The translations under genes and the position numbers were made by a program. A DNA stretch of 25,194 nucleotides from a virus: IMG/VR virus record IMGVR_UViG_3300005918_000119, positions 1-25,194 of that record, one strand, 5' to 3'. This document shows positions 5,946-22,506 of this stretch, in pieces; the stretch's first letter is position 1; each line of letters opens with the position of its first letter. The notes under the pieces are model-generated. The model did not search any database. It was not told the origin of the DNA and was given only the letters and a program-made list of their open reading frames with translations.

Positions 5946-6695
5946 ATGAGTTTATTTGGTGGTGGAAACGCAACATTAGCACAGATCAATGAAGTACCTA
6001 TGCCAGTCCAGACTGATACATATCAGCCTGTTAGTCATTTAAAGCTGGTTCAGACAGTTCAGGAAATCACTCAGGACGTGCTTCCTGTAGAGCTCCAGAA
6101 AGCAGAATACAAGCTGGCATCTGATGGGCAGCATCTTTTTGCTCACATGCGCTTTAAAGCCCTTATGGGCTTCTCTGATGCAGCGGGAATGGGAATGAGT
6201 GTAGGTATCGTGAACAGCTATAACAAACGTCTGAAAGTTCAGATCGCTTCAGGTGCTGAAGTAATGGTATGCTCAAATCTTATGGTAACTGGAGATATCC
6301 ACTTCATGCGGAAACATACTGGAACGGTATGGGAAGATATCGCTGCTGCAGTAGCAGCTAACATTGCCACTTCTGAAGAGCGTTTCGATGCTGCAGTGAT
6401 CGCCCGGAATACTCTATCTGATCGTGAGCTCAGTGATGCTGAAGCCCATTCAATCGTGGGCAGGCTGTATGGTGAGCACATGCTTACAAACCCCATGATC
6501 AGCAAGGTTCGTGATCAGTGGATCACTCCAGATCATGAAGAGTTCCAGCCCCGTACCCAGTGGAGCCTTTACAATGCTGTCACTGAAGCCTACAAACTTG
6601 CACAGCCCGGCGATGCCCTTCAGCGGTATCAGAGGCTTCACAATTTCTTCATGGATACTGCAGAGGATGGATTCAATCTGAGTAACATGAACTAA
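5946..6695 (+). CDS. DUF932-like protein
   Basis: This 249-residue protein follows the DUF932 pattern seen in phage and plasmid genomes. It has an N-terminal PVSHLKLVQTVQE segment, a central LFAHMRFKALMGFSD block where family members have RNSxD-like residues, then SVGIVNSYN and VMVCSNLMVTGDIHFMRKHT (the family's VCxNL...G...RH pattern). The C-terminal 90 residues are helical. The biochemical role of the family is not established. Members are common next to DNA-metabolism genes. The start has GGAAGGGATT upstream, under promoter module 3, and a strong terminator follows, so this looks like a single-gene unit. Confidence 0.65.
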   Translation: MSLFGGGNATLAQINEVPMPVQTDTYQPVSHLKLVQTVQEITQDVLPVELQKAEYKLASDGQHLFAHMRFKALMGFSDAAGMGMSVGIVNSYNKRLKVQIASGAEVMVCSNLMVTGDIHFMRKHTGTVWEDIAAAVAANIATSEERFDAAVIARNTLSDRELSDAEAHSIVGRLYGEHMLTNPMISKVRDQWITPDHEEFQPRTQWSLYNAVTEAYKLAQPGDALQRYQRLHNFFMDTAEDGFNLSNMN

Positions 6696-15443: not shown

Positions 15444-17597
15444 ATGGGCATTGTAAAAAGACGGATAACGATGATCGAATGGGTGCCTTATGATGGAGAT
15501 GGTGCCATTGTACTCGGAGACGCTGCAGGTGTAAATAAAACACGTGTCCAAAACGTGAACCGTGTTGATGTAAAGACTGTGGACTCACTTGGTAATTTCT
15601 GGGTTGCGGGTGGGATCTCAGCCGGTGGTGTTGGAATGTTATTGACAGAGCAGGCTGTAAAGCCTGGTACTCCTGCCGCTGGATCTGGCCGAGTCTATAG
15701 CAAAACAGATGGTAAAGTATATTATGAGAATTCCGCTGGTAGAGAGTTTTTGCTGAGTGATGCTGGTGGCCTGCCAATGGCCGATTATGTAATCGACGAT
15801 GCAGGAGATACGAGTGCTGCCCTCACAGCTACAGTTGATGCATCTTCAGGTGTCTCAGTTACATGTACCTTTGCCGGTGTATCAAATACGATTGGTGATC
15901 CGACAGGAATAACAGCGAACCGCAAGTTCTGGGTTATGAACCTTGCATCAAGCACTGAGAACGCAACCTTTAACGGGATCGTAATCGAACCCGGCCACAT
16001 CCAAGGGTTCCAGTGGGATGGAGCAGCATGGGGCCAATTAGCTTCCGTTGATGCAGCCAATATTACCTATATAGCGAATGGCTATGTTACAGCGAATAAT
16101 GCTCAAGCTGCTTTTGATGGCTTTATGCCAGCAGCAGTTAAAGTTGCTGAAGCAAATAGAGCATTAGTCCCTGATGCTGATTTAGATGTAAGTAATCTTA
16201 GAAATGTGGATATAACTGGTATATTTACAATAGTAAATAATGTCTGGAAACGAGCAGTAGATTTCGCAGGTACAGGCTTTGTCAATATGTTCAAAATCAA
16301 TGCTTCTGATGAGATAGAGGTAGGAGCAAAATTAAATGGCACTTCCGCTAACTTTACTGGTAATCTTGTGGTCGCTGGCGGAATCTCAGCAGCTCCCTAT
16401 TACGGTGTTACATGGAATGAGACAACCGATGTATATGCCAGAACCGGGGCTCTATCCGGCGAGGCTATCGGAGCATCACCATCGGCATTTATGCCTATTC
16501 AGGAAGCCATGAAACGCTGCGTTCTGGATGACTCCGGAAACGTGCTCTACTTTCTCGATCCCGATGACAGTACACTAAAAGACAATGGCCAGCCAGCAAC
16601 CATCACGGATCAATCGCATGGTCAGGTCATGGTCCAGATCCCTAAATTCTGGTACAAGTACAGTTATTCAGCTCCATCGCATACCTGGGAAATCGCATCA
16701 CAACCCGTAGAGGGTTTTACGGTGCACCCTGCGTTTATCAAGGACGGCCAGGAGGTTGATTTTAGATATGTGGGTGCTTATGAGGCAAGTCTATATGATG
16801 CCACAGCTGGTGCCATGGTAGCCAGTGCCGACATTGTGACGAGCCTGTATGCCGCTGGAGATATACTCTGCTCAATATCGGGTCAGTTCCCAAAGGTGAA
16901 TGAAACACGTGCCGAGTTTAGAGGTGCGGCATCGCAACGTGGGGCCGGGTGGAGAGAGATGGACTTTGATTTGATGAGTGCTGCCCAGTTGCTCTATCTG
17001 ACGGAATATGCAGATTTTGATTCACAGACCACGATAGGCGAAGGCAGAACAGCACTCTCAGGCGGATCATGGGTCGCTGATAGCTATATCGGGCAGGCTG
17101 GGAAATCAAATTCGGACGGCAATGGATCAGCATCGGTGGGTGGCAATAGCAACACCGCTTATATGACCTATCGAGGGATCGAAAATTTCTTTGGGAATGT
17201 CTGGACCTTTATAGATGGGGTTAACATCTACAATAATGAGGCCGGGGCTTATAGTCGCTTGTTCGCATGTAACAACGAAGCCAATTTTGCAGACGATACT
17301 CAAACAAATTATGAAGAGGTCGGAGATCTGGCTCTCCTGGATGAATACCAGTCCACCTTGTCCCAGGTAATGCGAGGCTTTTTGCCTCTCACAGTCGGTG
17401 CAACCAGCTCTACAAAAATCACCGATTATTTCTATACCTACTACGACAATCTCGGTAGTGGTTGGGTCGAGGATTACCGGGTGCTCCGGTTGGGCGGTTC
17501 TGCGAGTGTCGGTTCGCCGGCGGGCGTTTTCTGCGTGTATGCGAGTAGCGCCTCTGCGTATGGCGATGTGGCCGTCGGCGGTCGGCTGTGCTTTTGA
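15444..17597 (+). CDS. DGR-diversified tail-fibre / receptor-binding protein (C-type-lectin-like)
   Basis: This 717-residue protein has an N-terminal fibre part with two copies of a VAGGISA motif (residues about 52 and 310), beta-rich spacer sequence, and a C-terminal region from about residue 320 that reads as a formylglycine-generating-enzyme/C-type-lectin fold. FFGNVWTFIDGVNIYN (within residues 570-590) and the closing RVLRLGGS...GGRLCF are characteristic. The last 38 codons are the VR of a diversity-generating retroelement, which in known DGR phages forms the ligand-binding face. AAGGAG lies nine bases before the ATG. The host receptor cannot be inferred. The presence of GGCC words marks it as compositionally foreign to this genome. 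Confidence 0.85.
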   Translation: MGIVKRRITMIEWVPYDGDGAIVLGDAAGVNKTRVQNVNRVDVKTVDSLGNFWVAGGISAGGVGMLLTEQAVKPGTPAAGSGRVYSKTDGKVYYENSAGREFLLSDAGGLPMADYVIDDAGDTSAALTATVDASSGVSVTCTFAGVSNTIGDPTGITANRKFWVMNLASSTENATFNGIVIEPGHIQGFQWDGAAWGQLASVDAANITYIANGYVTANNAQAAFDGFMPAAVKVAEANRALVPDADLDVSNLRNVDITGIFTIVNNVWKRAVDFAGTGFVNMFKINASDEIEVGAKLNGTSANFTGNLVVAGGISAAPYYGVTWNETTDVYARTGALSGEAIGASPSAFMPIQEAMKRCVLDDSGNVLYFLDPDDSTLKDNGQPATITDQSHGQVMVQIPKFWYKYSYSAPSHTWEIASQPVEGFTVHPAFIKDGQEVDFRYVGAYEASLYDATAGAMVASADIVTSLYAAGDILCSISGQFPKVNETRAEFRGAASQRGAGWREMDFDLMSAAQLLYLTEYADFDSQTTIGEGRTALSGGSWVADSYIGQAGKSNSDGNGSASVGGNSNTAYMTYRGIENFFGNVWTFIDGVNIYNNEAGAYSRLFACNNEANFADDTQTNYEEVGDLALLDEYQSTLSQVMRGFLPLTVGATSSTKITDYFYTYYDNLGSGWVEDYRVLRLGGSASVGSPAGVFCVYASSASAYGDVAVGGRLCF
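17480..17593 (+). repeat. DGR variable repeat (VR)
   Basis: This 114-bp repeat aligns without gaps to the TR at 17626-17739 and ends one base before the fibre stop codon. At 21 of the 27 TR adenine positions VR has another base (14 G, 4 T, 3 C). Only two non-adenine positions differ (17488 and 17556, both T in TR and G in VR). This adenine-specific pattern is the defining feature of a DGR target. Confidence 0.95.
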
Positions 17598-17619
17598 AAA
17601 ATTTTTACGGGTTTTTGTG

Positions 17620-17633
17620 GGAGCAGGTGCTCC
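17620..17633 (+). promoter_or_regulatory. Small hairpin at the VR-TR junction
   Basis: GGAGCA (17620-17625) pairs with TGCTCC (17628-17633). It lies 26 bases after the end of VR, and its 3' arm is the first part of TR. In the Bordetella phage DGR a hairpin just downstream of VR aids retrohoming. This one is similarly placed, but its two-base loop is tight. Confidence 0.35.
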
Positions 17634-17739
17634 TGTTGGGCAGTAATGCGAATAACGGTTCGACAGCAGGCGTTTTCTACGTGAATGCGAATAACGCCTC
17701 TTCGAATGACAATGTGAACATCGGCGGTCAGCTATGCTT
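17626..17739 (+). ncRNA. DGR template repeat (TR)
   Basis: This is the non-coding donor copy, 114 bp, 32 bp downstream of VR and 104 bp upstream of the RT gene. It is rich in AAT/AAC triplets in the VR frame (nine such codons). No combination of adenine substitutions can create a stop codon in that frame. It is expected to be transcribed and reverse-transcribed with adenine mutagenesis by the adjacent RT. The TR transcript probably extends into the spacer toward the RT, where TTGCC/GGCAA (17761-17774) can form a hairpin. Confidence 0.95.
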
Positions 17740-17843
17740 GAAGTCGTAACCACAAAGACCTTGCCTCTTGGCAAAACACAAAGCGATTCCCATATGGTGT
17801 CAGTAGGTCATTTTGATTCGAAAGCTCCGGGACATCCAAGCAC

Positions 17844-18803
17844 ATGAAGCGTCTTGGATATTTATATGAAGAAGTTTGTTCGATGGAAAATCTCATTGAA
17901 GCCCATAAGAGGGCGAGTAAAGGAAAGGGTCATTACCGGGAAGTGAAGATGATTAATGCAGCACCAGAGAAGTTTCTACACCTACTCAGAGAAATGCTGC
18001 TTAATCAGACATTCAAAAACTCGACATACACAAGAATGATCCGCAATGAATATGGGAAAGAGCGTGAGATATTGAAGCTCCCCTATTTCCCAGACAGAAT
18101 TATCCATCATGCGATCATGAATGTGATGGAGCCGATATGGATTTCTCATTTCATCAATGATACCTGGGCGTCCATCAAAGGGCGTGGAGTGCATAAGGGA
18201 GTGAGACGTATCAAGTCGGCCATGGGTGATCAGGCAGGGACACGATTTTGCTTAAAGATGGATGTCAGAAAATTTTACCCATCGGTTGACAATACGATCA
18301 TGAAGGACATTATTCGCCAAAGGGTCAAGGACGTTCGCTTACTCTGGTTGATCGACGAAATCATTGATTCATCAATCGGGCTTCCAATAGGCAATTATCT
18401 ATCACAGTTTTTGGCGAATCTATATCTCTCTGATATGGATCACTGGATTAAGGAACACCTTGGTGTCAAATATTACTTCCGCTATTGTGATGACATGGTG
18501 CTGCTTTCAAAGGGCAAGCGTGAGCTGCATAAATATCGCAGATTGATAGATCAGTATCTATCAGAACGCCTCAACCTTCAACTCAAAGGGGATTGGCAAG
18601 TATTTCCTGTTGATGCCCGGGGTATTGATTTTCTCGGATATAGGTTTTTCCACGGATACACACTCGTTCGAAAATCCATTGTAGCCAGATTTAAGCAGAA
18701 ACATAAGAGCCATAAGGTTGCTTCAATTCCGGCTTACTGGGGGTGGTTTAAGTGGGCAGACACAAACAATCTAATAAAAAGATATGGGGTTAATTATGGG
18801 TAA
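17844..18803 (+). CDS. DGR reverse transcriptase
   Basis: The 319-residue enzyme contains the RT core in order: SIKGRGVHKG (about 110-119), KMDVRKFYPSVD with catalytic Asp140, IGNYLSQ (182-188), and RYCDDMVLL with Asp216 and Asp217 (YxDD box as YCDD). The IGxxxSQ motif in place of the QG found in retron and retroviral enzymes is diagnostic for DGR RTs. The start YLYEEVCSMENLIEAHKRA matches the usual N-terminus of the family, so I keep ATG 17844 although its ribosome-binding site is weak. It is expected to copy TR RNA with adenine-specific errors. The 3' end overlaps the next gene. Confidence 0.93.
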   Translation: MKRLGYLYEEVCSMENLIEAHKRASKGKGHYREVKMINAAPEKFLHLLREMLLNQTFKNSTYTRMIRNEYGKEREILKLPYFPDRIIHHAIMNVMEPIWISHFINDTWASIKGRGVHKGVRRIKSAMGDQAGTRFCLKMDVRKFYPSVDNTIMKDIIRQRVKDVRLLWLIDEIIDSSIGLPIGNYLSQFLANLYLSDMDHWIKEHLGVKYYFRYCDDMVLLSKGKRELHKYRRLIDQYLSERLNLQLKGDWQVFPVDARGIDFLGYRFFHGYTLVRKSIVARFKQKHKSHKVASIPAYWGWFKWADTNNLIKRYGVNYG

Positions 18804-19116
18804 GGGAACAAGCATACAGCGGCCAGATCTAACCGTTTTTCGTAATCGGCGTCTGCAAGTGAGGTTCAATATCACGGATGCGACGATGGACGATGGCATT
18901 GGCGGGACCATGGCACAATTCAAATACGATTATATTGAGGTCTCAACTCCTGTAGATAGAAAAAAGATCATTGTGGCTTTAATTAGATCTATTTTTGATG
19001 TCGATGATGAGTTTGCGCTCATGCATCTCGACCCGCAGGATCCCGCCTACATCGAATATCGGGCTCATGTTGACAAATGCAAATCGATTGCTGACGAGGT
19101 GCTGAGTGTATTGTGA
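18796..19116 (+). CDS. Hypothetical protein downstream of RT
   Basis: This 106-residue protein overlaps the RT stop codon. I prefer ATG 18796 (GGGGT five bases upstream) to ATG 18784, which lies further inside the RT gene. It has a basic N-terminus (MGKGTSIQRPDLTVFRNRRLQVRF) and an acidic helical C-terminal half (IIVALIRSIFDVDDEFALMHL, then KCKSIADEVLSVL). No family is named. The position after a fibre/DGR unit suggests a tail- or DGR-associated role. It is not recognisably an Avd protein. Its stop overlaps the GTG start of the following gene. Confidence 0.55.
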   Translation: MGKGTSIQRPDLTVFRNRRLQVRFNITDATMDDGIGGTMAQFKYDYIEVSTPVDRKKIIVALIRSIFDVDDEFALMHLDPQDPAYIEYRAHVDKCKSIADEVLSVL

Positions 19117-19406
19117 AAAAGTTCTCAGAGTTCTCCACGGAGGATCAACCATTAGACGGCAGGAAAAGTCGTATGGACGATATACTGAATCAGAAAATAA
19201 TTGTCACAGGCTTCAGTATAAAAACGAGCAAATACAGTAAGAATGTAACCGGAAAGTATCTGACATTGCAATTTGAGATGAACAACGAGACCCAAATAAT
19301 TTTTACAGGATCGGATGTATTAATCGGTCAAATGGAGCGATATGGCGAGGAAATCCCATTTGCGGCAGTCATTAAAAAAATCAATCGGTATTATACCCTA
19401 ACGTAA
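19113..19406 (+). CDS. Small OB-fold-like protein, possible nucleic-acid binder
   Basis: This 97-residue protein starts at GTG 19113, overlapping the preceding stop (GTGA). After a helical N-terminus the pattern is alternating beta strands: KIIVTGFSIKTSKYSK, KYLTLQFEMNNETQIIFTG, then a helix (SDVLIGQMERYG) and closing strands (AAVIKKINRYYTL). Similar small phage proteins look like OB-fold single-strand DNA binders. I infer that fold from the pattern and have no motif proof. As it is coupled to the RT operon, it is the best candidate in the cassette for a nucleic-acid-binding helper. Confidence 0.5.
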   Translation: MKKFSEFSTEDQPLDGRKSRMDDILNQKIIVTGFSIKTSKYSKNVTGKYLTLQFEMNNETQIIFTGSDVLIGQMERYGEEIPFAAVIKKINRYYTLT

Positions 19407-21921: not shown

Positions 21922-22506
21922 ATGAGCCCAAAGAATTCATCCCGTGCCCCGTCCGATCCCCCCAGCAGTATTGCTGGTGGGGATACGGATGAAACAGAAA
22001 AGGACGATACAAAAATGCCTCATGCAAAAGGATCGATTCTTATAGTTGACGATGATAGATCCCAGAGGGCTTATCTCCGTGGATTGATTGAGTATAGCTT
22101 CCCAGAGGTATATGTGGGTGAGGCTGGCAACTTTGAATCAGCAATGAAGATGGCTGGTGAACATGATTTTGATTTATTTGTTATGGATGTGCTGTTAGAT
22201 GGGAATACAGATGGAGTTCAGGCTGCAAAGGCACTGAATGCACTGAATGGGTATCATGTAACTCCAGTGATATTTATTACTGCAGCAGACGGGATGAGGG
22301 CGAAACTGAAGAGTGAATTTGATAATTTCGTATGTTACGATAAACCACTTAAACCCCATGTATTTAATCGCCGTGTAGGACGATGCTTGGAGCTAATGGA
22401 AAGCCTTAATCAGATAAGGCAAAATGTGATAAGTCTGAATATTCTTGAAACTGATATGATAGCTCAAAATGAAATGCTTGGGGGAATACATGCCATCCGA
22501 ACGTGA
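21922..22506 (+). CDS. CheY-like response-regulator receiver protein
   Basis: Residues about 37-160 form a complete receiver domain with all key positions: acidic pair Asp43-Asp44 (in SILIVDDDRSQ), phosphoacceptor Asp89 (VMDVLLDG), Thr120 (FITAADG) and Lys141 (YDKPL). It should therefore be phosphorylatable. There is no DNA-binding output domain, only a helical C-terminus of about 35 residues. The first 31 residues are a polar linker, so ATG 22015 (AAAGGACGATACAAAA upstream) is an alternative start. A near-palindromic hairpin lies around 21955-21985 at the N-terminal coding part. Its place inside a tail gene cluster is unusual. The cognate kinase is not in this window. Confidence 0.8.
   Translation: MSPKNSSRAPSDPPSSIAGGDTDETEKDDTKMPHAKGSILIVDDDRSQRAYLRGLIEYSFPEVYVGEAGNFESAMKMAGEHDFDLFVMDVLLDGNTDGVQAAKALNALNGYHVTPVIFITAADGMRAKLKSEFDNFVCYDKPLKPHVFNRRVGRCLELMESLNQIRQNVISLNILETDMIAQNEMLGGIHAIRT

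What the first reader, a model, noticed from the sequence alone, without database searches (positions are those of the whole stretch)
17480..17739. Complete diversity-generating retroelement targeting a tail-fibre tip
VR (17480-17593) and TR (17626-17739) align over 114 bp without gaps. 21 of 27 TR adenines are changed in VR (14 to G, 4 to T, 3 to C), against 2 differences in the other 87 positions. A reverse transcriptase with IGNYLSQ and YCDD motifs follows. VR encodes the last 38 residues of a C-type-lectin-like fibre. TR holds nine AAY codons plus six others in which A can change the residue. By my arithmetic 15^9 x 4^6, about 1.6 x 10^14, proteins are possible, and no combination can create a stop codon.
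Basis: partly seen in the sequence, partly recalled or inferred. Interest (0 to 1): 0.85.

Follow-up and report, generated by a model that had tools for sequence, protein, structure and literature searches.

The report
Phage fibre-mutating retroelement with unusual partner
This phage carries a working "diversity-generating retroelement" that keeps rewriting the tip of its own tail fibre, and it appears to use a small nucleic-acid-binding-type protein in place of the helper protein (Avd) known from the textbook system.

Summary
It is a genuine diversity-generating retroelement (DGR), active in nature. Two near-identical contigs differ from the window at 20 positions in 2,887 bp (all in VR) and 17 in 5,265 bp (16 in VR), while TR is identical. 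The RT falls on the DGR side of a tree rooted on group II introns. The fibre domain's best structural match is the DGR protein TaqVP (C-type-lectin fold). The TR-RT spacer is Rfam RT-17 RNA.

(1) There is no Avd. A 97-aa basic OB-fold-like gene (19113-19406; unannotated family phrog_19665) accompanies this RT lineage. Searched for alone, 84 of 89 hits have a DGR RT nearby. It never occurs with Avd, sits in Avd's place in some phages, and is the RT's C-terminal domain in one contig and in hankyphage. (2) In this lineage, template A in CAG/CAC becomes G almost always (78 of 79 internal synonymous sites), unlike BPP-1-type DGRs. (3) Effective diversity is therefore about 10^11, not 10^14. I could not check whether Wu et al. 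2018 already named this gene (recalled as "CH1").

The parts
15444..17597 (+). target gene: 717-aa tail fibre; C-terminal ~400 aa (16383-17594) is a C-type-lectin-fold domain
   Evidence: phrog_5302 tail protein 7.9e-90; AlphaFold pLDDT 93.1, pTM 0.93; Foldseek top hits DGR variable protein TaqVP 3e-10, then Mtd variants and TvpA at weak E-values; profile hit to TaqVP 5VF4 1.6e-9
17478..17593 (+). variable repeat (VR), last 38 codons of the fibre; 17478-17479 also match TR
   Evidence: differs among five contigs mainly at TR-A positions
17624..17739 (+). template repeat (TR), intergenic, between fibre and RT
   Evidence: identical in six contigs
17757..17847 (+). structured spacer RNA between TR and RT: Rfam RF03020 RT-17
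   Evidence: 42.2 bits, gathering cut-off 40.4; same place in 11 of the 26 other OB-lineage loci tested; BPP-1-type loci have RF03022 Phage_DGR there instead
17844..18803 (+). DGR reverse transcriptase, 319 aa
   Evidence: RVT_1 8e-15; phrog_1423 6.6e-116; tree
18796..19116 (+). 106-aa ORF overlapping the RT stop and the OB gene start; conserved downstream of the RT in several relatives; function unknown
19113..19406 (+). 97-aa basic (pI 8.9) OB-fold-like protein, candidate DGR partner protein in place of Avd (GTG start)
   Evidence: family alignment; AlphaFold pLDDT 90.9, b-b-b-a-b-b; linkage to RT in 84 of 89 loci; RT fusions; pI

Best explanation
This is a naturally active DGR on a tailed-phage contig. 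TR is transcribed with its RT-17 spacer RNA. The RT copies it with errors at template A, and the cDNA replaces VR, so the last 38 residues of a C-type-lectin fibre tip are rewritten. Receptor binding and host-range change are inferred from fold and gene context. The DGR nature and natural activity are shown by sequence data. It belongs to an Avd-less DGR lineage whose RT is accompanied by an OB-fold-like basic protein, encoded in trans (here 19113-19406) or as the RT's C-terminal domain (hankyphage). I infer that this protein does Avd's job, binding the RT together with the TR-spacer RNA or the cDNA. In this lineage the RT inserts C opposite template A flanked by 5'-C and 3'-G/C almost every time, so CAG/CAC in TR become CGG/CGC in VR.
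For: DGR activity: identical TR with divergent VRs; 36 of 37 mismatches against two near-identical contigs lie in VR, 31 of them at TR-A. RT phylogeny. CLec fold. Spacer RNA. OB partner: scans with this family alone bring in a DGR RT in 84 of 89 loci, and 4 of the 5 exceptions are cut by contig ends. OB and Avd never co-occur: 67 loci with Avd and none of these with OB among BPP-1-type RTs, 144 OB and 0 Avd among own-type RTs. In L043-L048 the OB gene lies between VR and TR, Avd's place. In-frame RT-OB fusion in L010; hankyphage RT residues 327-434 are the OB domain, i-E 7.5e-23; the top BFVD structure hits are phage RTs. OB follows the RT even where the target protein is different (L010-L042). 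Context rule: 185 of 194 internal CAG sites are G, over 107 distinct 17-mers; synonymous sites 78 of 79, against 9 of 36 in other contexts and 4 of 12 in the Avd clade.
Against: No biochemistry. The OB-fold assignment rests on predicted topology; no solved structure matches significantly. L230 has the OB gene and a fibre-like gene but no RT in the DNA held. Several RTs nested in the same tree region have neither OB nor Avd (Butyrivibrio-phage type), so the partner is not universal. Many of the 144 OB loci were fetched with the OB family, so the unbiased evidence is the RT-first set L002-L060 and the reverse linkage test. Hankyphage, which has the OB domain, does not follow the CAG/CAC rule, so the rule belongs to a sublineage. 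TR/VR pairs are phylogenetically related, so P values overstate independence.
Confidence: 0.78

Rival explanations
1. The DGR is real, but the OB-fold-like gene is an ordinary phage structural or lysis-region gene that rides next to the fibre/RT module and has no role in homing.
For: It lies in an overlapping gene row with another small ORF; L230 has OB plus a fibre-like gene without a detected RT; some close RTs lack it.
Against: Its position relative to the RT changes (downstream, between VR and TR, fused), yet linkage to the RT holds in 84 of 89 loci; it is covalently joined to the RT in hankyphage and L010; it stays with the RT when the target protein is different.
Confidence: 0.17
2. CAG/CAC to CGG/CGC is not a mutation bias but fixed TR/VR differences (such as IMH against IMH*) or selection on the protein.
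For: Some such sites lie near the ends of the repeat; the TAT site at 17588 in VR is a fixed G in this family and a fixed T in others, as a fixed IMH-type difference would be.
Against: Sites counted as internal lie between adenines that changed in the same VR, and 185 of 194 are G at 107 distinct sequences; the effect is the same at synonymous sites, 78 of 79; BPP-1-clade DGRs do not show it.
Confidence: 0.12
3. The element is a decayed DGR or a chance or tandem repeat.
For: None found beyond two non-A differences.
Against: Intact RT, TR invariant across contigs, and VR different in each while the flanks are identical.
Confidence: 0.01

Closest known systems
Bordetella phage BPP-1 DGR (Brt/Avd/Mtd)
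   Same: VR at the 3' end of a C-type-lectin fibre gene, intergenic TR, structured spacer RNA, RT downstream, A-specific changes
   Different: BPP-1-type loci have Avd (PF22296) between VR and TR and Phage_DGR RNA (RF03022); here no Avd, an OB-like gene and RT-17 RNA. CAG/CAC context outcome differs
ANMV-1 archaeal virus DGR (Paul et al. 2015, PMC4372165)
   Same: OB homologue (AJP62065.1, 42.6% identity) immediately downstream of the RT; CLec target adtA
   Different: distant RT (35% identity); the paper's Fig. 1 legend labels an 'Avd' ORF, but no Avd homologue was found by profile in the stretch held
Hankyphage p00 DGR (PMC6199706; activity shown in PMC12135933)
   Same: RT carries the OB domain as its C-terminal 108 residues; VR in a gene with a C-type lectin domain
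   Different: fusion instead of a separate gene; does not follow the CAG/CAC rule; the authors call a small ORF Avd-like by size and pI
Thermus aquaticus DGR variable protein TaqVP (5VF4)
   Same: nearest solved structure of the target fibre domain
   Different: 16% identity over the structural alignment; whole-chain TM about 0.42-0.45
CH1 accessory gene of Wu et al. 2018 (recalled; paper not held)
   Same: possibly the same family: PMC10053308 says one DGR-associated protein of that survey has no Pfam/CDD attribution
   Different: could not be compared; identity unknown

Membership tests
Diversity-generating retroelement (DGR) | TR/VR pair differing almost only at TR adenines | tested here: met
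   21 of 27 A against 2 of 87 non-A, P 1.5e-15
Diversity-generating retroelement (DGR) | TR invariant and VR diversified in the natural population | tested here: met
   one TR and five VRs in five contigs; 36 of 37 mismatches against two near-identical contigs lie in VR
Diversity-generating retroelement (DGR) | RT of the DGR clade with IGNxxSQ and YxDD motifs | tested here: met
   outgroup was group II intron RTs and one other plasmid RT, no retrons included
Diversity-generating retroelement (DGR) | VR in the ligand-binding C-terminus of a target protein (CLec or Ig fold) | tested here: met
Diversity-generating retroelement (DGR) | structured TR-RT spacer RNA | tested here: met
   RF03020 RT-17 at 17757-17847
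Diversity-generating retroelement (DGR) | mutagenic homing demonstrated experimentally | not testable with these tools
   sequence evidence only
BPP-1-type DGR | Avd (PF22296) accessory protein | tested here: not met
   absent from the window and from related contigs, while the BPP-1 control gave 2.2e-37; none in 155 loci with own-type RT by local profile
BPP-1-type DGR | IMH at the 3' end of VR differing from IMH* in TR | tested here: inconclusive
   fixed 3' differences at 17584 and 17588 in all VRs, but one of them is also a CAG site
BPP-1-type DGR | hairpin just after VR | tested here: not met
   1 of 97 loci of this lineage has a strong perfect stem (6 bp or more) within 56 nt after VR, against 8 of 43 in the Avd clade; imperfect or shorter stems were not tested
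OB-fold nucleic-acid-binding proteins (for ORF 19113-19406) | five-stranded barrel with a helix between strands 3 and 4 | tested here: inconclusive
   predicted topology b-b-b-a-b-b at pLDDT 91, but no significant PDB match

The most novel reading that the evidence does not exclude
A large, previously unrecognised lineage of DGRs (phages of Bacteroides including hankyphage, archaeal viruses, contigs binned with Chlorobiaceae and Deltaproteobacteria, and this phage) uses an OB-fold-like protein, in trans or fused to the RT, instead of Avd. A sublineage has an RT whose errors are not random: they turn nearly every CAG/CAC template A into G, giving programmed, context-coded mutagenesis.
Probability: 0.45. 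Interest if true: 0.78.

Novelty: new variant of a known kind. Interest (0 to 1): 0.6.

Why it matters
In BPP-1, retrohoming needs Avd, so DGRs without Avd have been hard to explain. A short protein that tracks the RT, swaps places with Avd and is fused to the RT in an experimentally active phage makes 'what replaces Avd?' directly testable in hankyphage (delete RT residues 327-434) or in a reconstituted system. The near-deterministic CAG/CAC rule offers a sharp, RT-lineage-specific handle on how DGR RTs choose the wrong base, and warns that diversity figures computed from possible codons overstate what a DGR explores. It also assigns Rfam's loosely named RT-17 and RT-18 RNAs to DGR spacers.

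Tried and rejected
Second VR in the window: none. Avd by Pfam model in the window and relatives: none. OB family in Pfam and PDB by sequence: nothing convincing; in the plasmid collection: none. Post-VR hairpin: not found in this lineage. tRNA: none. A dislocation model (copying the 5' or 3' neighbour base) for the CAG rule does not fit other contexts: NAC gives A to C only 0-9% here, unlike BPP-1's RT, where NAC raises G misincorporation in cDNA (PMC12875486). A first profile search for the 106-aa ORF 18796-19116 suggested weak homologues across DGR clades, but they did not hold up well enough to call it a DGR part. Papers not held: Wu et al. 2018, Weinberg et al. 2017. crAss cr7_1 was examined for a fused OB domain: not found by profile.

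Full report
OBSERVATION. Every number in the finding reproduces. VR 17480-17593 and TR 17626-17739 align over 114 nt without gaps; 21 of 27 TR adenines are changed (14 G, 4 T, 3 C), against 2 of 87 other positions; hypergeometric P is 1.5e-15. The pair extends 2 nt further 5' (17478/17624), giving 22 of 28 A changed. VR is the 3' end of a 717-aa ORF (15444-17597); TR is intergenic; the RT ORF is 17844-18803 with IGNYLSQ and YCDD. There is no second VR in the window. The window is a 25,194-base virus record with no end repeats, possibly a fragment.

NATURAL ACTIVITY. A scan with the RT brought in five other metagenome contigs whose RT is 100% identical at the protein level. TR is identical in all six records; the five with a full VR have five different VRs; of 26 variable VR columns, 21 are TR-A, 4 T, 1 C. 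Against L004 (2,887 bp aligned) all 20 mismatches lie in VR; against L006 (5,265 bp) 16 of 17 do; 31 of those 36 are at TR adenines.

RT AND TARGET. In an IQ-TREE tree rooted on group II intron RTs, the window RT lies on the DGR side (100/100) with phage relatives; BPP-1-type RTs are a separate group. No retron RTs were included. The fibre C-terminal domain (16383-17594), folded from an alignment of 32 sequences, gives pLDDT 93 and pTM 0.93. The leading Foldseek PDB matches are DGR variable proteins: TaqVP at 3e-10, then Mtd variants and TvpA at weak E-values. A profile search hits TaqVP (5VF4) at 1.6e-9 (identity of the entry from PMC6328139). The C-type-lectin reading is therefore supported.

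SPACER RNA. Rfam places RT-17 (RF03020) at 17757-17847, exactly between TR and RT. The same family is found in the same place in 11 of 26 other OB-lineage loci and in L096 and L099; six BPP-1-clade loci carry RF03022 'Phage_DGR' there; L053, L058 and L085 carry RT-18. RT-17 and RT-18 thus look like DGR spacer RNAs.

NO AVD, BUT ANOTHER GENE. The Avd model PF22296 finds nothing in the window or in related contigs, while the BPP-1 control is hit at 2.2e-37. The third gene of the overlapping row RT, ORF2, ORF3 (19113-19406, 97 aa, GTG start) belongs to a family present next to the RT in nearly all relatives. It matches phrog_19665, function unknown, in 21 of 26 members, and no credible Pfam or PDB sequence. 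I searched with this family alone, without the RT: 84 of 89 loci contain a DGR-type RT in the fetched flank, mostly directly upstream; 4 of the 5 exceptions are cut by contig ends; only L230 is a real exception. The position varies: downstream of the RT, between VR and TR (L043-L048, where BPP-1 has Avd), or fused. In L010 RT and this domain form one ORF. In hankyphage p00 the RT (DAC76693.1, 434 aa) ends in this domain, residues 327-434, i-E 7.5e-23, and that DGR is experimentally active (PMC12135933). The family and Avd never occur together: 67 Avd-only loci among BPP-1-type RTs, 144 OB-only loci with own-type RT (loci from L173 on were selected by this family, so RT-first loci L002-L060 are the unbiased part). 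The two OB loci assigned to the BPP-1-type RT group by best BLAST score are ANMV-1 (L184) and a decayed RT (L269); neither has Avd. The gene accompanies the RT even in L010-L042, where in most loci the window fibre has no detectable relative. In the published archaeal virus ANMV-1 it is AJP62065.1, right after the RT.

FOLD OF THE PARTNER. AlphaFold with 25 aligned members gives pLDDT 90.9 and a strand order b-b-b-a-b-b, as in OB folds. No solved structure matches significantly. In the viral library the two best hits (8e-7, 1e-5) are phage proteins named as reverse transcriptases or group II intron-type proteins, consistent with fusion. Median pI is 8.9 and length 95-126 aa, close to the 'pI 9, about 10 kDa' profile used for Avd in PMC4372165. 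That it binds the TR RNA or cDNA and the RT, as Avd does, is my inference.

CONTEXT RULE. In the window family the five TR adenines at 17642, 17665, 17668, 17730 and 17734 are G in every VR of the five contigs; four are in CAG. Over 109 distinct TR/VR pairs of this lineage (88 TRs), internal CAG adenines are G in 185 of 194 cases (107 distinct 17-mers) and CAC in 80 of 85; GAA, AAT and AAC adenines vary freely. At internal sites where any base is synonymous, CA[GC] is G in 78 of 79 cases, other contexts in 9 of 36 (Fisher 1.6e-17), and CA[GC] in the BPP-1 clade in 4 of 12. Selection on the protein cannot explain this, and fixed end differences cannot explain internal sites. Sequence context is known to bias BPP-1's RT (PMC12875486), but the pattern there differs (NAC raising A to C in the coding sense); I found no report of this near-deterministic outcome in the papers I could read. 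The TAT site at 17734 (17588 in VR) is fixed G here and fixed T in related families, which looks like an IMH-type fixed difference. With the lineage's context frequencies the window TR explores about 10^11.4 effective protein variants, not 10^14.2 (neighbouring adenines treated as independent).

VERDICT. Ordinary in kind (a DGR), fully confirmed, naturally active; unusual in two details: an Avd-less lineage with an OB-fold-like partner, and a sublineage-specific CAG/CAC rule. The main uncertainty about novelty is whether the partner equals the 'CH1' gene I recall from Wu et al. 2018, which is not held here; PMC10053308 mentions a DGR-associated protein without Pfam/CDD attribution.

Noticed in passing
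window 21922-22506: Phage gene for a response-regulator receiver domain (PF00072, 1.8e-14) in the downstream region; no sensor kinase was seen among the ORFs scanned; unusual cargo for a phage.
   Followed up: no
window 18796-19116: 106-aa ORF between RT and OB gene, overlapping both; homologues directly downstream of the RT in several relatives, weakly in Butyrivibrio-phage type loci. Possibly a tail-fibre helper; function unknown.
   Followed up: partly
L013-L042, L049-L051, L056: Relatives with two (L050, L051: three) VRs served by one TR, in target genes not detectably related to the window fibre.
   Followed up: partly
L053, L058, L085; L096, L099: Rfam RT-18 and RT-17 RNAs sit in the TR-RT spacer, so these RT-named RNA families are DGR template-RNA parts.
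   Followed up: partly
L269:5257-6258: In a Deltaproteobacteria MAG a deletion joins the RT N-terminus to the OB domain: apparently a decayed DGR with TR/VR still present.
   Followed up: no
L062, L064-L095 (Butyrivibrio-phage type): DGRs with neither Avd nor OB gene detected, and with strong hairpins after VR (13 of 27 in the no-accessory group): what helps these RTs is open.
   Followed up: no
window 5946-6695: DUF932 protein (PF06067, 3.8e-12) on the phage contig.
   Followed up: no
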